Assembly: GCA_004292755.1 (NCBI GenBank)
Contig: RDXE01000053.1
Coordinates: 1 to 44,896, forward strand
Length of the DNA stretch: 44,896 nucleotides
DNA from: Alphaproteobacteria bacterium
GTDB lineage: Bacteria > Pseudomonadota > Alphaproteobacteria > Elsterales > Elsteraceae
Reading direction: 5' to 3'
Shown here piece after piece: positions 74 to 11,464 of this stretch. Within the stretch, counting starts at the first letter, position 1. Each line of letters begins with the position of its first letter. The notes beneath the pieces were generated by a model. It was not told the DNA's origin and did no database searches. It saw only the letters and a list, made by a program, of their open reading frames with translations. Made by a program: the position numbers and the translations under genes.

Positions 74-1730
74 TCAGTTGTTGTTTGGTGCGAACATATC
101 GCCCAGTCCCTCGTCCATCTCTGGGGCGATGGGCATGCTCTCCTCCAGGCTCTTGCGCTCGAACGGGCCGCTGTCGAGGTCGACGGCGAACACTTCGCCC
201 GGCAGCCAAGTTGCCAGTTCCGGTACGGCCCACATCAGACCAATCCCGAACACCTGCAGGAACACGAACGGCAGCACGCCGCGATAGATCTGCATGGTCG
301 AGATCAGTTTTTCCGACACGCCGCGCAAGTAGAACAAGGCGAAGCCGAACGGCGGGGTCAGGAACGAGGTTTGCAGGTTCATGCCCATCAACACGCCAAG
401 CCACAGCGGGTCGACACCCATCTTGATCAGCACGGGAGCCGTGATTGGCACCATGATGAAGATGATCTCGAACGTGTCGAGGAAGAACCCGAGCACGAAC
501 ATGATGAGCATTACCAGCATCACCGCGCCGAATTGGCCGCCGGGCATGGCTTCCAGGATGTCTTCCACCACCTTTTCGCCGCCGAGGCCGCGGAACACGA
601 GGCTGAACACCGAGGCGCCGAGCAAGATCACGAACACCATCGACGAAATCAGCATCGTCGAGCGGCCGCTTTCCCGCGAGACTTCGGGTCACCAACGTGC
701 CAAGGATGAAGCCGCCGGTCATCGCGATCAGCAGGCCGGCCAAGCCAAAGATGAAACCAAGGGCAATCAGCACTGCGAGGAACACCAGCCAGAACTTGAA
801 CATGATCTGTTCAAGCTCGTCTTCGTCCGTGGTGCCAGCGAAGTGTTCGGCAATGTTCTTGATCTGGGTCAGCAACAACGCGCCAACGGCACCGAACGAG
901 GCGCTTTCGGTTGGCGTTGCAATGCCAGCCAGGATCGAGCCCAACACCGCGAGGATCAGCAGCAGCGGCGGCACCAACGCCACCACGATACGGCGGCCAA
1001 GGCCCGCCTTCTCATGGGCCGTCATCACCAGCGGGGGGGCTGCGTGCGGGTCGGTGTAGGCGCGGTAGAGCACCCATAGGGCGTAAAGCACTGCCAGCGA
1101 CACGCCGGGGATCAGCGCGCCGACGAACAATTCACCGACCGAGATCGGATCGGGCGTCAGATTGCCAATCTCCGCCTGGGCGCGCGCGTTCGCGCCTTGC
1201 AGCAGATCGCCAATAAAGATCAGCACCGTGGAGGGCGGGATGATCTGGCCCAAGGTGCCAGAGGCGCAGATCACGCCTGCTGCCAATTTCGGATCATAGC
1301 CCGCGCGCATCATCGCGGGCAGCGACAGCAGGCCCATGGTCACAACCGTGGCGCCGACGATGCCGGTGGAGGCCGCCAGCAGCGCCCCCACGATCACCAC
1401 GGAAATGCCAAGACCACCGCGCATGCCGCCGAACATCTGCCCCATGGTGGTGAGCAGGGTTTCCGCGATCTTGGAGCGCTCCAGCACCACGCCCATGAAC
1501 ACGAACAGCGGCACTGCGACCAGCACCTCGTTGATCATGGTGCCGAAGTAACGCGATGCGAGGCCGGTCAGCAGTGCGTAGTCAAACACCCCAAACCAAT
1601 GGCCGATCCAGGCGAAGATCAACGCCAAACCAGCCAGGGAGAAGGAGACGGGATAGCCAATGAACACCACGAAGATCGTGGCGACAAACATGATAAGGGC
1701 GATGATTTCGCCGATCACAGCTTGCGACAT
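74..1730 (-). pseudogene. dctM: TRAP transporter large permease DctM, interrupted by a frameshift
   Basis: Large membrane subunit of a TRAP transporter, which moves carboxylates using a Na+ or H+ gradient together with DctQ and a periplasmic binding protein. The first frame runs from the ATG at 1730 and carries many membrane segments and DctM hallmarks, such as the stretch with GTLGQIIPPSTVLIFIGD. After the bases encoding LGTLVT it goes out of frame into arginine-rich nonsense. The rest (SMVFVILLGASVFSLVFRG to the C-terminus) continues in the next frame down to 74. Skipping one C of the CCC at 686-688 (minus strand) restores a continuous 551-residue protein, a normal size for the long DctM variant. 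Either this is a real inactivating or phase-variable indel, or it is an assembly error. The start lies 24 bp after dctQ. No dctP gene is present in the window. Confidence 0.8.
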
Positions 1731-2420: not shown

Positions 2421-3098
2421 TCAGAATCGTCGGGGGCGAAGGCCAAATTGCATCGCAGTGAGCGCAAACCCCACTGCCGCTTGGGTGGGATCGACCACTG
2501 GGACAGCCAAATCCGCCTCCAACATCGGTCGGTAGCGCGCCATACCAGCGCAGCCCAGCACGACCACGTCGGCGCCATCCTGGTGAACCAAAGTGCGCGC
2601 TGTTGCTAGCAGTCGATCCTGTGTGCGCGATTCGTCGCCCAACTCTACCACGGCGAGGCCCAGGGGGCGTTCACCGACCACGCGGTCCATCGCACCCATG
2701 GCGCGAAACGCGCGGATGTGGCGCGGAATCGATTGCGGCAAGATTGCAACCACGCCCACCCGCTGACCCAAGCTCATGGCGGTCAGCATGCCCGCTTCCA
2801 TGATGCCAACCACTGGCTTGTTGGTGACTTCGCGCGCTGCAAACAGGCCGGGATCCGAAAAACAGGCGATCACGAAGGCGCTGGCGGTCTCCTCAGCGCT
2901 CTCTGTGGCGATCAGGCGACACAGCGGCCCGGTCACGGCTTCGATGTCGCGCTGGCTTTGGATGCCCGGTGGCCCCTCGCTCAACGTGACGCAGCGAATG
3001 GCGGGCGCACCCGGCAAGCGCATCGGTTGCACCGCCTGATCCAACCCCTCGGTCACGGCGACGGTGGAGTTTGGATTGATCACCAGAATATCAGTCAC
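2421..3098 (-). CDS. Asp/Glu/hydantoin racemase family protein
   Basis: A 225-residue protein of the aspartate/glutamate/hydantoin racemase superfamily. The N-terminus (ILVINPNSTVAVTEGLD) is the characteristic first strand and loop of hydantoin-racemase-type members. The two catalytic cysteines are at Cys79 (VIACFSDPG) and Cys183 (VLGCAGM). The start chosen is the GTG at 3098, which overlaps the stop of the histidine kinase gene (GTGACTGA), with a GGGAG-type ribosome site just upstream. A longer open frame back to 3212 would overlap the kinase extensively and adds only unconserved residues. Members racemise amino acids or hydantoins, or isomerise or decarboxylate small diacids. The substrate here cannot be told, but the transporter genes around it suggest a carboxylate or its amide. 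Confidence 0.82.
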   Translation of the reverse strand: MTDILVINPNSTVAVTEGLDQAVQPMRLPGAPAIRCVTLSEGPPGIQSQRDIEAVTGPLCRLIATESAEETASAFVIACFSDPGLFAAREVTNKPVVGIMEAGMLTAMSLGQRVGVVAILPQSIPRHIRAFRAMGAMDRVVGERPLGLAVVELGDESRTQDRLLATARTLVHQDGADVVVLGCAGMARYRPMLEADLAVPVVDPTQAAVGFALTAMQFGLRPRRF

Positions 3099-4716
3099 GG
3101 TTGTCTCCCATCGCGGCGCCGGGCTCAGCGGGAAGCACCAAGCGGGCTGTGGTACCTTGCCCGACGATGCTGTCCAACTCCAAGCGGCCACCGTGCAGAC
3201 GGGCAAAGCCATCCACCAGGGTCAAGCCCAACCCGGTGCCACCCTCGCTGCGCACCAGCGCGGAGCCGACCTGCTGGAAGGCATCGCGCACCCGTTCCAG
3301 GTCATCAGGCTCGATCCCGGGGCCGGTGTCGGCAATGCTGATCACCACAGTCCCGTCAATGGTGCGCGATGTGATGCTGATCTGACCGCCAGCGGGTGTG
3401 AACTTCACAGCATTTTCCAACAGATTTGCGACCATCTCGCGCAGGGCGCCCAAGTCACCGACGATAGTTTCGGTCGCCAGATCAACGTTTATTGTTAGGG
3501 ACTTGCTGTCAATCAGTGTTGAAAAGCTGTGTAAGCAGAACCGCACCAGACCATCAATGACAATCTCAGTCGGGGCGATCTGCATCTCCCCAGCTTGCAG
3601 CTTGGCGACAGTCAACACATCGTTGACAAGGCGTAACAACTGGCGGCCCGCACGCCCAATGTCGGTGATATACTCCTCATAGCGATCATTCCCCAACGGG
3701 CCGAAATACTGACCGGAAAGCACTTCGGAGAACCCCAAAATCGCATTGAGGGGCGTGCGCAATTCATGGCTGATGGTCGCAAGGAAGGCGGATTTGGCCT
3801 GGTTTGCTTGCTCGGCTTCCTCCTTCGCGCGGCCCATCTCGGCCATTGCATCGGCCAGATAGCGCGTCATTTCCTGCTGCTCACGCTCGCGCCGTTTGGC
3901 ATCGGTCACGTCGGCGCGGGTGCCAACGGTACCGCCGGTTGGGAGCGGTTGCTGGGTGATCACCAACCAGCGCTGCCCGCTCTGGACCGCCTGACTGATC
4001 GCGTCGCGGGTGGCATCGCTGCCCGGCGGCACCAGCACCTCGCCGACGGCCTCAGCCTCGCGCAGCAGATCGGTGATGCTGGCACCGGGCACAAGCACTG
4101 GCGCCAAGCCGGGATAAAGCTCGCGCAAACGGCGATTGCAGAGGACCAGATAACCGCTGCGGTCAAACACCACAAAGCCATCGGTCAAACAGTCAATCGC
4201 CGTGCGCATCAATTGTTCGGAGGCGATCACTGCATCCTGCGCTTCCCGCAGATCGGTGATGTCGCGGCGGATGCTGATGGTGCCGCCGTCCGACAAGCGA
4301 TAATCGCTGGCGCGCACCCAGTGCCCGGCGGCAGTCCGCCACTCCGCGACGCTGCCATCGGCGCAGGTGAAGGTGGCGATGCGGCGCGCCAGCAGCGCCT
4401 CGCGATCCTCCCGCGCCACGGCCGCCGTAGTCTCCAGCCAGCGGGTGGTGATGTCCCGAAAACTGTCCCCTGGCTTGGCATCGGCTGCCGCCAAGCCACC
4501 GAGGCGGCGATACGCGTCGTTGCAATAGATCAAGCGCTGCTCGCGATCCCACAACGCCATGCCATCGCCGACGACGCGCGTTGCCTCCAGAAACCGGCGT
4601 TCGGTATCGGCGCTGGTCGTCCGCTGTGTGTGGGTGTGACGAGACCGAACCAGCGCGAGGGTGACGATGCCCAGAGCAATCGCGAGAACTGGGGCCGCCC
4701 AAGCCAACCAGATCAT
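3091..4716 (-). CDS. PAS-domain sensor histidine kinase
   Basis: A 541-residue sensor kinase. Residues 3-23 form one membrane segment. Two PAS-like regions follow (about 40-155 and 170-275), then a short coiled coil (about 275-308). The HisKA domain has the phospho-acceptor His317 in ATISHELRTPLNAILGFSEVLSG. The HATPase domain has the N box (NLLENAVKF, Asn435), G1 (DTGPGI, 463-468) and G2 (EGGTGLGL, 491-498). All catalytic motifs are intact. No receiver domain and no response regulator gene lie nearby. An HPt protein is encoded two genes upstream in the same operon, so signalling may run through a phosphorelay. The start is 12 bp after the I78-like gene; the 3' end overlaps the racemase start by 8 bases. 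Confidence 0.93.
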   Translation of the reverse strand: MIWLAWAAPVLAIALGIVTLALVRSRHTHTQRTTSADTERRFLEATRVVGDGMALWDREQRLIYCNDAYRRLGGLAAADAKPGDSFRDITTRWLETTAAVAREDREALLARRIATFTCADGSVAEWRTAAGHWVRASDYRLSDGGTISIRRDITDLREAQDAVIASEQLMRTAIDCLTDGFVVFDRSGYLVLCNRRLRELYPGLAPVLVPGASITDLLREAEAVGEVLVPPGSDATRDAISQAVQSGQRWLVITQQPLPTGGTVGTRADVTDAKRREREQQEMTRYLADAMAEMGRAKEEAEQANQAKSAFLATISHELRTPLNAILGFSEVLSGQYFGPLGNDRYEEYITDIGRAGRQLLRLVNDVLTVAKLQAGEMQIAPTEIVIDGLVRFCLHSFSTLIDSKSLTINVDLATETIVGDLGALREMVANLLENAVKFTPAGGQISITSRTIDGTVVISIADTGPGIEPDDLERVRDAFQQVGSALVRSEGGTGLGLTLVDGFARLHGGRLELDSIVGQGTTARLVLPAEPGAAMGDNRD

Positions 4717-4728
4717 CGCCGCCCCCGC

Positions 4729-5004
4729 CTACAGGCACAGCAGGCGGACAATCCGCCCACGACCATCGACGAAGAGGGTCAGTCGTCCGGGGTCAATCGG
4801 ACCGGCTAGGGGCGCGTCGGCGGCGACCACGCGATGGCCGCGCGGCAGATTGCTGATCTGCAGTCCGGGCTCGCCAATGCGCCGACCAATCCACGCCTCC
4901 CGCCCGCCACACAGCACCGCCGGGCGCGGCTGAGCCGGTGGTGGTGGCTCGCTTTGGGCGACGGTCAACTCAGCCACCAGCCACAGGCCCACCAGATCGA
5001 TCAT
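4729..5004 (-). CDS. Small I78-like peptidase inhibitor family protein
   Basis: A 91-residue protein. Its ATG at 5004 overlaps the HPt stop codon (ATGA), showing translational coupling. A short hydrophobic N-terminus (residues 3-16) may be a signal or anchor. After a proline-rich linker come Cys32 (AVLCGGREAWIGRRIG) and a C-terminal strand pair RLTLFVDGRGRIVRLLCL with Cys90. This spacing of two cysteines, the IG motif and the RL..xVDxxGRI...C ending is the pattern of the I78 peptidase inhibitor family. The usual TxD segment before RL is replaced by a different loop, so inhibition is not assured. Its place between an HPt and a sensor kinase is unusual and may mean a sensory accessory role. The family call rests on pattern recognition only. 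Confidence 0.6.
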   Translation of the reverse strand: MIDLVGLWLVAELTVAQSEPPPPAQPRPAVLCGGREAWIGRRIGEPGLQISNLPRGHRVVAADAPLAGPIDPGRLTLFVDGRGRIVRLLCL

Positions 5005-5426
5005 GGCGCACCTGCCGCTGCGACCAGGGCTGCCACTCCTGCCGATGCCGCCGTCGCTGCGGCCCGCACCGCGTCCAGATCCGGGGTGATCGACTGGTTT
5101 TCCGACAGGGCGCGGCGCAACAGCCGCTCCACATCCAGCGCTTCGGCCACCAACCACTCGGCGCCTGCGTGTGCGGCGACACCTTTGAGGCTGTGCAGCC
5201 AGAACACCATCTGTTTCAAGTCACCGGCTGCGAGCGCTGCTTCCAGCCTGGGCATCAGGTCGACTTCTAGCGTGGTGCGAAACAGGTCCACATAGGCTGC
5301 CACCACTGCTGGGTCGTTCGAACCCAGCAAGTCCTCGACAATAGACCGATTGAAAGCAGGCGGCTGCACGGACCGATGTCCTACCCAAGTCTCCCCGCTG
5401 GGACCCTCGCTGATCCCGAAAGCCAC
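5001..5426 (-). CDS. HPt (histidine phosphotransfer) domain protein
   Basis: A 141-residue protein with a single HPt four-helix domain (about residues 30-125). The phosphorylatable His78 lies in the canonical motif HSLKGVAAHAGA. No other domain is visible; the alanine-rich C-terminal tail is probably helical. HPt proteins pass phosphate between receiver domains, yet no receiver is encoded in the window, so the partners must be elsewhere. The gene begins 11 bp after the amidohydrolase and overlaps the I78-like gene by 4 bp, so it belongs to the minus-strand operon with the histidine kinase. Confidence 0.87.
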   Translation of the reverse strand: MAFGISEGPSGETWVGHRSVQPPAFNRSIVEDLLGSNDPAVVAAYVDLFRTTLEVDLMPRLEAALAAGDLKQMVFWLHSLKGVAAHAGAEWLVAEALDVERLLRRALSENQSITPDLDAVRAAATAASAGVAALVAAAGAP

Positions 5427-5437
5427 AGCAAGCGCTA

Positions 5438-6283
5438 TCAGCGTTCAGTCACAAACCCAAACAGCCGACCAGCAGTGGCGGCGAGACGATGCGCCAGCAC
5501 GCTACCTGCGCGGTCTGTCAAGGCGAGCCAATCCTGGTAGCGGCGATTTGCCTCGTGTTGTGTCCAGGGCCAGTCACTGCCCCAGAGCAGGCGGTCGGGG
5601 CCGAGCTGGGCAAACAGGTCCTCAAGGCAGCCGTCGACGGAACCCAGCACGCGATAGGGCGCTGATAGTTTGACGTACAGCCGCCCGCTTGGTCCTTCGC
5701 GCAGCAAGAGTTGAAATCCTGGGCACGCGCGCCCGAGGCCTAGGGTTGGGCGGCCAAAATGGTCGGCCACGATTGTCGTTGGTATGCGATCCAGTGCGCG
5801 CAGCACCGTGGACCATTGCGGGCCATCGGCCTGCACTTCGATCTGCCAGCCCAACGCCGCGACGCGCCGAACCAGATCGCGCAGGTCCGGGCGATCCAGG
5901 ATGGCGGCATCCTGGTCAATCAAGTTGAAGCGCACGCCGACCACGCCGACTGCCGCCAGATCGCTCAAGGCCGTGTCGGTGATCCCTGGATCGACCACGG
6001 CGATGCCGCGCAACCGCCTGGGGTGAGCGGCAAGGCAGCGCACAAGGTAGCTGTTGTCGGTGCCCAGGAAGGAGGGTTGGACGAGCACGCCCGCGGCCAC
6101 CCCATGATGATCCAGCACCGCCAAGAATTGCTCCACCGACGCGTCGTAGCCTGGCGTGTAGCGACGCTGCGGTGCCATCGGCAGGCTGGCCAGAAAACAA
6201 TGGGCGTGGGTGTCGATCGGGGCAGGCAGCGTCGCTGGAGGCATGCCCGTCAGTCTAGGGCTTGCAGTCAATCCTGTCATCAT
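5438..6283 (-). CDS. Metal-dependent amidohydrolase (PDC-lactonase-like)
   Basis: A 281-residue TIM-barrel hydrolase of the amidohydrolase-2 family. The metal-binding motif DTHAHCF is at residues 24-30. Further active-site elements are ADHFGRP (His175) and LLWGSDWPWTQHE (Asp237). These resemble 2-pyrone-4,6-dicarboxylate lactonase and related lactonases, which open lactone rings made in aromatic degradation. The actual substrate is unknown. It is the first gene of the minus-strand operon, divergent from gntR. The ATG at 6283 lies against the presumed operator and has no ribosome-binding site, so translation may be leaderless or start at the internal ATG at 6244, which still keeps the DTHAH motif. 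Confidence 0.85.
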   Translation of the reverse strand: MMTGLTASPRLTGMPPATLPAPIDTHAHCFLASLPMAPQRRYTPGYDASVEQFLAVLDHHGVAAGVLVQPSFLGTDNSYLVRCLAAHPRRLRGIAVVDPGITDTALSDLAAVGVVGVRFNLIDQDAAILDRPDLRDLVRRVAALGWQIEVQADGPQWSTVLRALDRIPTTIVADHFGRPTLGLGRACPGFQLLLREGPSGRLYVKLSAPYRVLGSVDGCLEDLFAQLGPDRLLWGSDWPWTQHEANRRYQDWLALTDRAGSVLAHRLAATAGRLFGFVTER

Positions 6284-6310: not shown

Positions 6311-7045
6311 ATGCAGGACCGCCTCACCGAGACCGACCAACGCTTGCCGATGTACCAGCGCGTCAAGGATGCGCTGACCCAACGCCTAGCGGAGGGGGAG
6401 TGGTCGCGTGCCGAGCCCTTGCCCTCTGAAACCGTGCTGGCGGCTGAGTATGGCGTCGCCATCGGCACAGTGCGCAAGGCCCTGGAAGGGTTGGTGGCCG
6501 AAGGGTTGCTGGAACGTCAGCAGGGCCGTGGCACGTTCTTGCGCCGCCCAAGCTTTGGCAATGCCCTGTTCCGCTTCTTTCGGTTGAGCGATGGCAGCGG
6601 AGCGATTGTGCCGCCGCGAGCCCGCATCTTGAGCCGCACCATCGGCCAGGATGAGGAGCGCGCACGCACCCTGGGCCTCAACCCCGCGGCACCCCTGTTG
6701 GTGCTATTCCGCGAGCGGTCAATCCAGGATCGCCCGGCCCTGGTGGAGGAAATCGCGCTGGATGCTGCGCGCTTTCAGCCCCTTTCAACCCTGCCGCTGG
6801 ATGCCTTCGGCGACCTGCTCTACCCGCTCTATGAGGAGGTGTGCGGCCTGTTGGTCGTCCGGGCGGCGGAGACCATCCGCTTCAGTCAAGCCACCCCGCC
6901 CATTGCCGCGGCGCTCAACATCCCGACTGGCACCGCCACGGCGGTGATCGACCGCATCGCCTATGGCATCGACGCACGACCCCTGGAATGGCGCCGCTCC
7001 CACGGGGAGGCCGCTCGCTTCAACTACACGATCGATCTGCGCTGA
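6311..7045 (+). CDS. GntR family transcriptional regulator with UTRA domain
   Basis: A 244-residue regulator of the HutC subfamily of GntR. The winged helix-turn-helix spans about residues 13-78 (MYQRVKDALTQRLAEGEW, then LPSETVLAAEYGVAIGTVRKALEGLVAEGLL, and the wing RQQGRGTF). A UTRA ligand-binding domain spans about residues 95-240. UTRA domains bind small effectors, usually the substrate or product of the controlled pathway. The gene starts 3 bases after a GGAGGGG site. The stop is 22 bp before tctC, so it is probably co-transcribed with the TTT transporter and represses both it and the divergent operon. Confidence 0.93.
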   Translation: MQDRLTETDQRLPMYQRVKDALTQRLAEGEWSRAEPLPSETVLAAEYGVAIGTVRKALEGLVAEGLLERQQGRGTFLRRPSFGNALFRFFRLSDGSGAIVPPRARILSRTIGQDEERARTLGLNPAAPLLVLFRERSIQDRPALVEEIALDAARFQPLSTLPLDAFGDLLYPLYEEVCGLLVVRAAETIRFSQATPPIAAALNIPTGTATAVIDRIAYGIDARPLEWRRSHGEAARFNYTIDLR

Positions 7046-7067: not shown

Positions 7068-8060
7068 ATGACTGGCACCAATCGATCCCCGCTCTGGCTG
7101 ACGGCGCTGGCTGTCCTTGCCGTGGCGCCGGCACTCGTTCCCGGCGCTGCGACTGCGCAAACTTACCCCACCCGCCCGGTCTCGCTCATTGTCCCGGCCC
7201 CACCCGGTGGCGGCACGGACATCTTCGCGCGCCAATTGGCGGAATTGGTCAGCACCGCTGTGGGCCAGCGCTTCGTTGTGGAGAACCGCGGTGGTGCCGG
7301 GGGCACGCTGGGCACCACCCAGGTGGTTGCGGCGCAGCCCGATGGCTACACACTGGGCTTCATCTGGAATTCCCCGCTCACCACCAGCCCACATTCGCTG
7401 ACTCTGGCCTACACACCCGATAGCTATCGAGCGGTGATGTCGATTGGGTTTTCCTCCTATGTCCTGTGCGCGCGGGCGGATTTTCCCGCGGCGACTGGGG
7501 CTGAGCTGGTTGCACATCTGAAGGCCAACCCAAGTCGGTACACCTATGGCAATGATGGCGTCGGTGGCACCATGCGTCTGGCGGCCGAGCGGATTTTCCG
7601 CCGGATTGACACGCGCGTGCGGTCTGTCCCGTTTGCTGGGGCGGGGGAGACAGCGCGCGCCTTCCTGGGCGGCCATATCGACTTCTACGGTGGATCGCTG
7701 CCGCCCATCTTACCCCATGTCCAGGCAGGCACGGCGAAGTGCCTGATGCTGACCTCAGCCGATGCCAACCCAGCCTTGCCGCAGGCCGCTGGCCTGCAGT
7801 CGCTGGGGCTGGGTGAGGAGGAAACCGTGCTGTGGTGGGGCTTGATCGCCCCCGCACGGACCAATCCGCAGATCCTCAGTCGCCTGGAAGCCGTGTTCAC
7901 CGAGGCCGCGCGCAGCGACGCGTTCCGCCAAATCATGGAGCGCCAGGGAGCAACCCCGCGGGTGCTGGGGGCTGAGGCAACCCAGCGCCTGATCCGCAGC
8001 GAGCTGGCGGCCCTTGGCACGGTGGCCCAGGCCATCGGCCTGCAACGTCAGGCGCAGTAG
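7068..8060 (+). CDS. tctC: TTT transporter periplasmic binding protein TctC (Bug family)
   Basis: Extracytoplasmic solute receptor of a tripartite tricarboxylate transporter, 330 residues. A Sec signal peptide covers residues 1-31 (cleavage near AATAQ). The mature protein begins with YPTRPVSLIVPAPPGGGTD, the hallmark of Bug proteins, followed by FVVENRGGAGG. The start at 7068 is preceded by GGGAGG at 7055-7060; an open frame reaching back to 6963 would overlap gntR and lacks a signal peptide. Bug proteins bind carboxylates such as citrate, glutarate or aromatic acids. The ligand here is unknown but is probably linked to the amidohydrolase and racemase encoded divergently. Confidence 0.93.
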   Translation: MTGTNRSPLWLTALAVLAVAPALVPGAATAQTYPTRPVSLIVPAPPGGGTDIFARQLAELVSTAVGQRFVVENRGGAGGTLGTTQVVAAQPDGYTLGFIWNSPLTTSPHSLTLAYTPDSYRAVMSIGFSSYVLCARADFPAATGAELVAHLKANPSRYTYGNDGVGGTMRLAAERIFRRIDTRVRSVPFAGAGETARAFLGGHIDFYGGSLPPILPHVQAGTAKCLMLTSADANPALPQAAGLQSLGLGEEETVLWWGLIAPARTNPQILSRLEAVFTEAARSDAFRQIMERQGATPRVLGAEATQRLIRSELAALGTVAQAIGLQRQAQ

Positions 8061-8061
8061 C

Positions 8062-8514
8062 ATGCGCTCCCTGCATCAATGGCAGGGGGATGCTGCGGTC
8101 GGTGGCCTTCTGGCTGCCGTCGGTGCGCTGGTGATCCATCTGGCGCAGGCGCTGCCGGTCGGGACCTGGCGGGAGCCCGGTCCCGGTGCGCAGCCCCTGG
8201 TGCTGGGCGTGGCACTGGTGGTGCTGGGTCTGCTGGCAGCCTTACGGGCGTGGCGGGTGCGCGATGCCACTGCCGCGACGATTGGCGAGCCGCGCGCCGT
8301 CGCCACCCTTGGCCTGCTGGGTGGCTTTGTGCTGCTGCTGGAGCCCGTGGGCTTCCTGCTGACGGCACCAGCCTTCCTGATCGCCTTGATCGCCGCCCTG
8401 GGTGGCGGCTGGCGCCGCGCGGCCCTGATTGGTTTGCCGTTGGGGCTTGGCGCGTGGGCCGTGTTCGATCGCGTGCTGGGTGTGCCGCTGCCGCCCGGCC
8501 TGTTGCCATTGTAA
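8062..8514 (+). CDS. tctB: TTT transporter small membrane subunit TctB
   Basis: A 150-residue membrane protein with four hydrophobic segments (about residues 9-28, 45-65, 82-100 and 103-135), matching the TctB family in size and layout. It starts 2 bases after the tctC stop and is followed 13 bp later by tctA. The gene order tctC-tctB-tctA supports the assignment, because TctB sequences themselves are weakly conserved. An upstream in-frame start at 8014 is rejected because it lies inside tctC. Confidence 0.85.
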   Translation: MRSLHQWQGDAAVGGLLAAVGALVIHLAQALPVGTWREPGPGAQPLVLGVALVVLGLLAALRAWRVRDATAATIGEPRAVATLGLLGGFVLLLEPVGFLLTAPAFLIALIAALGGGWRRAALIGLPLGLGAWAVFDRVLGVPLPPGLLPL

Positions 8515-10040: not shown

Positions 10041-10532
10041 TTACGGCGTGCGCGGGGCTGGCGCCGGACCTGGACCTTGACCTGGACCTTGACCGGGGCC
10101 TGGACCTTGGCCTGGGCCGTGACCATGCCCACCGCCATGGCGGCGACCATCACCCAAGCGGCCTTCGCTCATCCGGCGATGGGCCTCGAGCAGGCGGCTC
10201 TGATCCTCCGCGGGCAGTTGCGCGAAGCGGGAGCGATACTCTTCCTGCAATTGGGTGCGCTGCTCCGGCGTTGCATCCTTCAGGCGCGGATCGGGTTGGG
10301 GACGACGCTGGGCCATCCATTGCTGGCGCTGTTCGGGGGTGGCCTGTTCCCAGCGCTGGCGCATTTCCCGCCGCATCCGCTCCCGTTCCTCCGGGGTGGC
10401 GTTCTGCATGCGTTGGCGCATTTCCTCGCGGGAGACCGGCGGGCCGGGGGGTGTCGGCTGGGCCACTTGCGCCAACACGGGTGTGGCGAGGCCCGCAATC
10501 ATCACAGCGGTTAGAAGAAGGGGGGAGCGCAT
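10041..10532 (-). CDS. Low-complexity secreted protein (DUF3106-like)
   Basis: A 163-residue exported protein. The signal peptide (residues 1-21, cleavage near VLA-Q) is followed by a charged helical region rich in Arg, Gln and Glu with repeated phrases such as NATPEERERM, QATPEQRQQW and DATPEQRTQL. The C-terminal tail is glycine/proline repeats (GPGQGP units). The repeated x-TPE-x-R pattern recalls DUF3106-type proteins and Spy/CpxP-like periplasmic helices, but no function can be assigned. A strong AGGAGG site precedes the ATG at 10532. The tail is encoded by short imperfect DNA repeats (about 10062-10130) and could vary in length. Confidence 0.7.
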   Translation of the reverse strand: MRSPLLLTAVMIAGLATPVLAQVAQPTPPGPPVSREEMRQRMQNATPEERERMRREMRQRWEQATPEQRQQWMAQRRPQPDPRLKDATPEQRTQLQEEYRSRFAQLPAEDQSRLLEAHRRMSEGRLGDGRRHGGGHGHGPGQGPGPGQGPGQGPGPAPAPRTP

Positions 10533-10618
10533 GGTGACCTCCTGGTTGGGATAACCAGTGGTACGCAGGCGATCCCCTCGGCATCCCCAACGGGGATTTA
10601 ATTTTCTGTCTGCCGGGT

Positions 10619-11464
10619 CTATCGCTTCACCAATGCCACCACCGCCTGAAACTTGATCTCGGGCGAGTCCGGGTACTCCAACACCTGAAACCGATCCGCC
10701 CACACCCGGTCAATAAAGGCGCGCGGGATGACAGCATCGCCATAGATTGAGGGTGGAAGGTGCGGGCCACCCCCGGTGGGGAAATAGACAAACTCACCAG
10801 CAGCGGCGCGGTCGCCGGCATCGCTCTGGGCGGCCAGTTTGGCTTGCAACGGCGCCAGCCAGATGGGCGGCGGCTCCACCGCCGTGAGCGAGCGCACGAA
10901 CTCAAGAAAGCTGGGCGGCTGCAGCGTGATCACCACCAAACCACCTGGCCGCAAGGCACGATGAATCTCACCCATCCAGTGGGTGGCCACGGCCTCCGGC
11001 AGGTGTGTGAACACGGAGTAGGCGTAAACCAAATCCATCAAGCCATCGCGGAAGGGCAGTACGCCATCGGCGGTGGTGAGGGAGACGGCTGCTGGCACGC
11101 GGGTCTCTCGACACAGGTCCAGCATCAGCGGAAACGGGTCTACCCCGTACAGCCTGCCGATCCCCGCATCGCGGGCAAACAAGCGCGCAATCCGGCCCCA
11201 ACCGATCCCGAAATCAAGAATCGTTGCATCATCCAGCCCACCACCGTTGACCCGGCGGTACAGGGCTTTGACTGCCTTGTAGAACTGTCCGGCACCCAGA
11301 ATGGCGTAGTCGTTGGCGACACCAACGCTGTTGGTCTGCAGCTCCTCACTCGGAAATCCAGGGAACGTCACCCCATCAATCACGGGCTCGTGGCGGGAGC
11401 GCAGAATGGTGGCGATCCAATCATCATCGCTCTGACAGCGGAACTGCTCAAACCCAACCGGCAT
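10619..11464 (-). CDS. Class I SAM-dependent methyltransferase
   Basis: A 281-residue protein with a Rossmann-type methyltransferase core. Motif I is TILDFGIGWGRIARLFA, followed by the acidic strand end GRLYGVDPF and a motif IV/post-motif region LVYAYSVFTHLPE. HRALRPGGLVVITLQPP is the usual strand-5 segment. The acceptor substrate is not indicated. The ATG at 11464 is preceded by GAAGGGGG; a longer frame to 11635 would run into the neighbouring gene and adds proline-rich nonsense. Confidence 0.8.
   Translation of the reverse strand: MPVGFEQFRCQSDDDWIATILRSRHEPVIDGVTFPGFPSEELQTNSVGVANDYAILGAGQFYKAVKALYRRVNGGGLDDATILDFGIGWGRIARLFARDAGIGRLYGVDPFPLMLDLCRETRVPAAVSLTTADGVLPFRDGLMDLVYAYSVFTHLPEAVATHWMGEIHRALRPGGLVVITLQPPSFLEFVRSLTAVEPPPIWLAPLQAKLAAQSDAGDRAAAGEFVYFPTGGGPHLPPSIYGDAVIPRAFIDRVWADRFQVLEYPDSPEIKFQAVVALVKR

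What the first reader, a model, noticed from the sequence alone, without database searches (positions are those of the whole stretch)
2421..5426. HPt, I78-like protein and histidine kinase in a catabolic operon without a response regulator
HPt (5001-5426), an I78-like small protein and a PAS histidine kinase are joined by overlaps or very short gaps and followed by a racemase and transporter genes. A two-component set lacking any receiver domain, with a predicted peptidase-inhibitor-fold protein in the middle, is not a standard arrangement. It may be a phosphorelay input for carboxylate uptake that shares a distant regulator.
Basis: partly seen in the sequence, partly recalled or inferred. Interest (0 to 1): 0.55.

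Follow-up and report, generated by a model that had tools for sequence, protein, structure and literature searches.

The report
Receiver-less HPt–kinase pair in catabolic operon
Two related uncultured alphaproteobacteria keep a signalling kinase, a phosphate-carrier protein and a small inhibitor-shaped protein inside a nutrient-breakdown operon, with no response regulator nearby, so the signal must be handed to a partner encoded elsewhere; each part is of a known kind, the combination is unusual.

Summary
On the minus strand, amidohydrolase–HPt–small protein–PAS histidine kinase–racemase are joined by an 11-base gap, a 4-base overlap, a 12-base gap and an 8-base overlap. HPt and kinase pass Pfam cut-offs and keep their catalytic motifs. 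None of the genome's 70 receiver matches lies on this 44.9 kb contig.

The small protein has an I78-like fold: below Pfam's cut-off, but a purpose-built I78 profile finds it clearly, and its structure model matches the CI-2/I78 inhibitor fold. The inhibitory loop is degenerate, so inhibition is doubtful.

The order recurs in the one congener held (two contigs meeting at the small protein/kinase). There the operon ends after the racemase: no receiver and no TRAP genes. It was not found elsewhere (77 relatives, a 385-genome class sample, an 84,980-species contig scan, plasmids). The same amidohydrolase family, sometimes beside a related GntR or Tct genes, occurs in other alphaproteobacteria without these three genes.

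Best reading: a genus-specific orphan phosphorelay input expressed with a GntR/Tct catabolic operon and handing phosphate to a shared receiver encoded elsewhere. That receiver was not identified. Unusual arrangement of known parts; moderate interest.

The parts
5438..6283 (-). amidohydrolase (PF04909), first gene of the run
   Evidence: Pfam 134.5 bits; NCBIfam best 4-sulfomuconolactone hydrolase 93.5 bits, cut-off 500 not met; 57% identical in congener
5001..5426 (-). stand-alone HPt protein, GTG start
   Evidence: Pfam Hpt 33.5 bits; H77, K80, G81 invariant with the congener; congener copy 32.9 bits
4729..5004 (-). small I78-like protein, 91 aa, two cysteines (C32, C90), hydrophobic N-terminus
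   Evidence: congener copy 73% identical over the 44 residues before its contig ends
3091..4716 (-). histidine kinase, one N-terminal transmembrane stretch, PAS_7 x2, HisKA, HATPase_c, no receiver domain
   Evidence: Pfam; hydropathy; congener kinase core 54% identical
2421..3098 (-). Asp/Glu/hydantoin racemase family protein, last conserved gene of the run
   Evidence: Pfam PF01177 200.2 bits; 71-73% identical in congener
6311..7045 (+). divergent GntR/UTRA regulator, start codon 27 bases from that of the amidohydrolase
   Evidence: Pfam GntR 67.5 and UTRA 71 bits; 61% identical in congener
7068..8060 (+). TctC, receptor of tripartite tricarboxylate transporter
   Evidence: Pfam 181.3 bits; start chosen by eye
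8062..8514 (+). TctB
   Evidence: Pfam 66.3 bits
8528..10018 (+). TctA
   Evidence: Pfam 488.5 bits
1755..2300 (-). DctQ, small TRAP membrane subunit; not part of the conserved module
   Evidence: Pfam 59.1 bits; absent after the racemase in the congener
74..1730 (-). DctM, large TRAP membrane subunit, reading frame broken; not part of the conserved module
   Evidence: Pfam 155.9 bits over the first frame only; second half in another frame

Best explanation
An orphan phosphorelay input placed inside a GntR-controlled catabolic operon. SHOWN: five overlapping or near-touching genes, conserved in a second species; intact phospho-acceptor motifs; no receiver on the contig, nor in the congener's run. 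INFERRED: the genes are made together when GntR is released by its ligand; the membrane-anchored kinase senses a cytoplasmic cue through its two PAS domains and phosphorylates itself; because a HisKA kinase does not hand phosphate directly to an HPt (recalled rule of phosphorelays), a receiver encoded elsewhere takes the phosphate and exchanges it with the HPt, which feeds or drains a second receiver. A single-domain receiver of the DivK or MrrA kind is the likeliest shared partner. The operon would thus report its activity to a global network rather than control its own transcription, which the GntR protein can do. The I78-like protein is probably exported and disulfide-bonded, and probably not a classical inhibitor; its place in the circuit is open.
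For: Gene joints. Domain calls. HPt H-x-L-K-G and the kinase HisKA/HATPase_c domains kept in both species. 0 of 70 receivers on the contig. Congener: amidohydrolase-HPt-small protein at one contig end, kinase-racemase at another, then a convergent ABC gene. The genome offers shared receivers: stand-alone receiver frames and a DivK-like receiver directly before PleD (REC-REC-GGDEF). MrrA, a single-domain receiver of Caulobacter, takes phosphate from at least six kinases and gives it to proteins acting as histidine phosphotransferases (PMC5964349, abstract and passages seen). Best NCBIfam match of the kinase core in both species is DivJ, far below its cut-off (186 and 216 bits; cut-off 1000).
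Against: No receiver was linked to the module: the one single-domain receiver near a racemase ortholog (G003) has no ortholog here (28-37% identity). HPt is the least conserved of the genes (38-42%), which fits weak constraint as well as fast co-evolution. Two species only, both represented by draft assemblies. The congener's kinase N-terminal half and the rest of its small protein fall in an assembly gap.
Confidence: 0.5

Rival explanations
1. The kinase is an ordinary orphan kinase for a distant receiver and the HPt works in an unrelated relay; they merely share an operon.
For: In a survey of 44,008 genes 65.6% of phosphotransfer genes and about 39% of kinase genes are orphans (PMC3018481, section 14 and passages). 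HPt and kinase are 284 bases apart, so by that paper's 200-base rule both would count as orphans. Close paralogs of this kinase in G000, G001 and G002 are also receiver-less among the neighbours tested, each near an N-formylglutamate amidohydrolase gene.
Against: HPt and kinase stayed together, with the small gene between them, while the proteins diverged to 38-54% identity.
Confidence: 0.25
2. HPt as phosphate sink: it drains a global receiver when the catabolic operon is on, and the kinase acts mainly as phosphatase on the same receiver.
For: The LovK-LovR pair works as a phosphate sink for MrrA (PMC5964349, abstract and passages seen). Kinase keeps the H-E-L-R-T box; the T is predicted to serve phosphatase activity in PdhS2 (PMC7003649, passages seen).
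Against: No direct evidence of flux direction.
Confidence: 0.12
3. The missing receiver lies just beyond the end of this contig, after the TRAP genes, and the set is an ordinary operon cut by assembly.
For: The window is the whole contig and the run reaches to base 66-74.
Against: In the congener the run ends at the racemase with a convergent gene, without receiver. TRAP genes are not conserved with the module.
Confidence: 0.08
4. The trio is a decaying insertion without function.
For: HPt absent from the other 7 genomes of the family searched; neighbouring DctM is frame-broken.
Against: All reading frames of the module intact, catalytic motifs kept, close joints kept in two diverged species.
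Confidence: 0.05

Closest known systems
Orphan histidine kinases feeding shared single-domain receivers in alphaproteobacteria (PdhS/PleC/DivJ to DivK; several kinases to MrrA)
   Same: Kinase without local receiver, HisKA core of the same general look, DivK-PleD pair present in the genome.
   Different: Here the kinase is co-encoded with a PF01627 HPt in a catabolic operon; NCBIfam cut-offs for DivJ/PdhS not met; partner receiver unknown.
Orphan HPt hubs such as HptB of Pseudomonas aeruginosa (recalled; search listing only)
   Same: Stand-alone HPt without a fused kinase.
   Different: HptB is recalled as taking phosphate from hybrid kinases with their own receivers and being encoded near its output regulator HsbR; neither is seen here.
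TctD/TctE-type two-component control of tripartite tricarboxylate transporters (recalled)
   Same: Sensor kinase next to a Tct transporter.
   Different: No response regulator; a GntR protein sits in its place; kinase has cytoplasmic PAS domains.
Solo HPt at the end of a TRAP operon in G129 (L130/L064)
   Same: HPt gene overlapping a carboxylate-type transporter gene.
   Different: There an OmpR-type regulator gene is next door; no kinase was seen among the neighbouring genes tested.
I78 inhibitor family / CI-2 fold (AFUEI, 3w0d)
   Same: Two conserved cysteines, strand pattern, C-terminal R-L-x-L-x-V-D motif, Foldseek rank 2 of the model.
   Different: Loop residues aligned with the consensus T-M-D are A-G-P; Pfam cut-off not met; short leader without basic residues.

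Membership tests
HPt (PF01627) | Profile above curated cut-off | tested here: met
   33.5 bits against 24.6; congener 32.9
HPt (PF01627) | Phospho-acceptor histidine in H-x-[LMC]-K-G | tested here: met
   H77-S-L-K-G in the window, H-C-L-K-G in the congener
HPt (PF01627) | Accepts phosphate from a receiver | not testable with these tools
   needs purified proteins
Peptidase inhibitor I78 (PF11720) | Pfam curated cut-off | tested here: not met
   16.6 bits against 23.6, last 20 residues only
Peptidase inhibitor I78 (PF11720) | Family-level sequence similarity by a lineage-specific profile | tested here: met
   23.0 bits, E 8e-6; best unrelated of 1731 frames 7.8 bits
Peptidase inhibitor I78 (PF11720) | CI-2/I78 fold | tested here: inconclusive
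   Model mean pLDDT 62; of the 50 PDB rows listed nearly all are CI-2/eglin/AFUEI-fold proteins, best E 0.06
Peptidase inhibitor I78 (PF11720) | Reactive-loop consensus T-M-D | tested here: not met
   A-G-P in the gap-free stretch of the profile alignment; the congener copy ends before the loop
Peptidase inhibitor I78 (PF11720) | Inhibits a serine peptidase | not testable with these tools
   needs an assay
Classical two-component system | Response regulator encoded next to the kinase | tested here: not met
   0 of 70 receivers on the contig; none in the congener's run
HK-REC-HPt-REC phosphorelay | Kinase and HPt present | tested here: met
HK-REC-HPt-REC phosphorelay | Intermediate and terminal receivers identified | tested here: inconclusive
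   many receivers in the genome, none linked to this module
PdhS/PleC/DivJ kinases | NCBIfam cut-off for DivJ or PdhS | tested here: not met
   186.2 against 1000; 153.5 against 2000
PdhS/PleC/DivJ kinases | Phosphorylates DivK | not testable with these tools
   needs phosphotransfer assay

The most novel reading that the evidence does not exclude
HPt, I78-fold protein and kinase form one sensory unit in which a periplasmic, non-inhibitory I78-fold protein reports a periplasmic state (substrate or peptidase activity) to the membrane-anchored kinase, and the unit taps a global hub receiver so that catabolism of one substrate adjusts cell-wide signalling. An I78-fold protein would then be a signalling part, not an inhibitor.
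Probability: 0.1. Interest if true: 0.65.

Novelty: new variant of a known kind. Interest (0 to 1): 0.36.

Why it matters
Most stand-alone phosphotransfer genes are orphans, and when paired the partner is a response regulator in 85% of cases (PMC3018481). A kinase and an HPt kept together without any receiver, inside a metabolic operon, points to a pathway that must plug into a shared receiver. If shown, it would give a compact natural case of substrate-specific input to a hub of the alphaproteobacterial network, and a candidate role for an I78-fold protein outside peptidase inhibition.

Tried and rejected
Order beyond the genus. HPt in 77 relatives: own genome and congener G001 only at E below 1e-16; 8 of 77 match at 1e-3, the six others no better than 2.7e-5. 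HPt alignment in 385 genomes of the class: 14 match at 1e-5; apart from the own genome the best is 8.7e-9, in a 1324-residue frame. The three hits in frames under 300 residues (own genome aside) all have a receiver beside or fused to the HPt: G312 and G131, G129. Contig collection of 84,980 species: one locus, JAAFHH010000195.1, taken to be the congener's contig by its equal length; the query was HPt alone with two patterns, so distant cases could be missed. Plasmids: none for HPt; one 37-bit hit for the small protein under an IS4 transposase annotation, dropped as chance.

Is the trio part of the wider catabolic operon? Nine neighbourhoods (9-16 kb each) around the nine best-scoring amidohydrolase genomes other than the own one: GntR relative in 3 of 9, Tct genes in 1 of 9, DctM in 2 of 9, HPt, small protein, kinase or racemase in 0 of 9 at E 1e-4.

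Candidate receiver from G003 (single-domain receiver near a 62% identical racemase): no ortholog in own genome or congener; the own genome's 9 matches and the congener's 8 are 28-37% identical. Rejected as partner.

Missing receiver behind the contig end: cannot be excluded for this species, argued against by the congener.

First I78 profile held two wrongly framed rows (L075, L082); it was rebuilt with corrected rows and only the second is used. L079 was left out of both (weak match, stop inside).

Literature: no paper holds 'I78 family', 'peptidase inhibitor' and 'histidine kinase' together; 'I78 family peptidase inhibitor' gives one paper (listing only); Tct transporter with two-component and HPt gives two listings, not read. 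Subscription papers are not covered.
Full report
WHAT IS THERE. The window is the complete contig C65 of a 4.2 Mb draft genome. On its minus strand five genes follow each other: an amidohydrolase (6283-5438), a stand-alone HPt protein (5426-5001), a 91-residue small protein (5004-4729), a histidine kinase (4716-3091) and an Asp/Glu/hydantoin racemase-family protein (3098-2421). The joints are 11 bases, a 4-base ATGA overlap, 12 bases and an 8-base overlap, which fits one translationally coupled transcript (inference). Divergently, 27 bases from the first start codon, lie a GntR/UTRA regulator and TctC, TctB and TctA of a tripartite tricarboxylate transporter. After the racemase, 120 bases on, come DctQ and a DctM whose second half is in another reading frame.

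THE SIGNALLING GENES. HPt scores 33.5 bits (cut-off 24.6) and has the H-S-L-K-G motif. The kinase has one N-terminal hydrophobic stretch, two PAS_7 domains, HisKA and HATPase_c and no receiver domain. None of the 70 PF00072 matches of the genome is on this contig. The genome has 14 HPt matches, three of them in frames under 150 residues, so stand-alone HPts are not unique to this place.

THE SMALL PROTEIN. Pfam's I78 model gives 16.6 bits, below 23.6, over the last 20 residues. A profile from 12 I78 domains of relatives, without the window protein, gives 23.0 bits and E 8e-6 over residues 32-90; the frame that contains the same gene is the only other match above 8 bits among 1731 frames of the window and seven related loci. 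A template-free model has mean pLDDT 62; in the PDB search its best matches are CI-2 and AFUEI, an I78 inhibitor, at E 0.06-0.11, and nearly all of the 50 rows listed are proteins of that fold. The E-values are weak but the consistency is telling. Where the profile consensus reads T-M-D in the stretch before R-L, the window reads A-G-P; in CI-2 that stretch is the reactive loop (recalled). So: I78-like fold, inhibition doubtful. In the congener the N-terminus is fixed by an upstream stop and is short, hydrophobic and without basic residues, so export is likely but not sure.

CONSERVATION. The one congener held, G001, has TctA-TctB-TctC-GntR and, divergently, amidohydrolase-HPt-small protein up to the end of contig C107, and at the end of contig C357 kinase-racemase, followed by a convergent ABC transporter gene. 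Identities to the window: TctA 82, TctC 71, racemase 71, GntR 61, amidohydrolase 57, kinase core 54, HPt 38% and small protein 73% over 44 residues. That the two contigs are neighbours is inferred from gene content; the gap was not bridged. The module thus survived strong divergence. It has no TRAP genes and no receiver there.

HOW FAR IT REACHES. HPt orthologs were found in no other of 77 relatives (the seven other genomes of the family gave no match at 1e-3), none clear in 385 genomes of the class, and only the congener in the contig collection. The amidohydrolase has relatives at E 1e-30 or better in 47 of 385 genomes, the own one included; nine enlarged neighbourhoods show GntR in 3, Tct genes in 1 and no HPt, kinase, I78-like or racemase relative. 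In G003 of the same family a 62% identical racemase sits behind a PF01979 amidohydrolase, read as hydantoinase-like by eye, with a single-domain receiver, an FAA-hydrolase-family gene and an aminotransferase nearby. The simplest history is that HPt, small protein and kinase came in between amidohydrolase and racemase in this genus (inference).

HOW IT MAY WORK. A HisKA kinase does not phosphorylate an HPt directly; a receiver must stand between (recalled rule). So either both proteins share a receiver from elsewhere or they act in separate pathways. Alphaproteobacteria are known for shared single-domain receivers: PdhS-type kinases are predicted to act on DivK (PMC7003649, passages), and MrrA collects phosphate from at least six kinases, with a classical HisKA kinase among those that phosphorylate it, and passes it to histidine phosphotransferases (PMC5964349, abstract and passages). 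The genome has a DivK-like receiver directly before PleD. The kinase core is most like DivJ among NCBIfam models in both species, but far below the cut-off, so DivK as partner is a lead only.

HOW UNUSUAL. In a survey of 1406 replicons, 65.6% of phosphotransfer genes were orphans and 30.2% in pairs, with a response regulator in 85.0% of the pairs (PMC3018481, section 14 and passages). A kinase-HPt set without a receiver is therefore uncommon but not unheard of. The stand-alone-sized HPt relatives found here (G312, G131, G129) all have a receiver beside or fused to them. The closest full-length kinase paralogs in G000, G001 and G002 are also receiver-less among the neighbours tested and lie near an N-formylglutamate amidohydrolase gene.

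VERDICT. All parts are of known kinds; the arrangement is a rare, genus-level variant.

Noticed in passing
window 74-1730 (-): DctM of the TRAP transporter is split between two reading frames, the change lying between about 655 and 700; a draft-assembly error or a broken gene.
   Followed up: partly
L130 (G129:C14:11000-27000), HPt about 7356-7676 (-): A TRAP operon whose DctM gene is overlapped at its end by a solo HPt gene, with an OmpR-type response regulator gene converging on it; a second link between HPt and carboxylate-type transport.
   Followed up: partly
L123, L124, L125: Close paralogs of the window kinase (PAS_7 x2, HisKA, HATPase_c) in three genomes each lie near an N-formylglutamate amidohydrolase gene, without a receiver among the neighbours tested.
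   Followed up: partly
L140 3213-3602 (-): Single-domain receiver between an FAA-hydrolase-family gene and a PF01979 amidohydrolase next to a racemase ortholog; no ortholog in the own genome or the congener.
   Followed up: yes
L029 (G000:C40:6241-6420) and L078 (G001:C16:3772-3948): A second I78-like protein, very similar between the two species, with a longer leader; its neighbours were not examined.
   Followed up: no
window 10041-10640 (-): Arg/Pro/Gln-rich protein with a sub-threshold match to the heavy-metal resistance family PF13801 (24.2 bits, cut-off 29.2).
   Followed up: no
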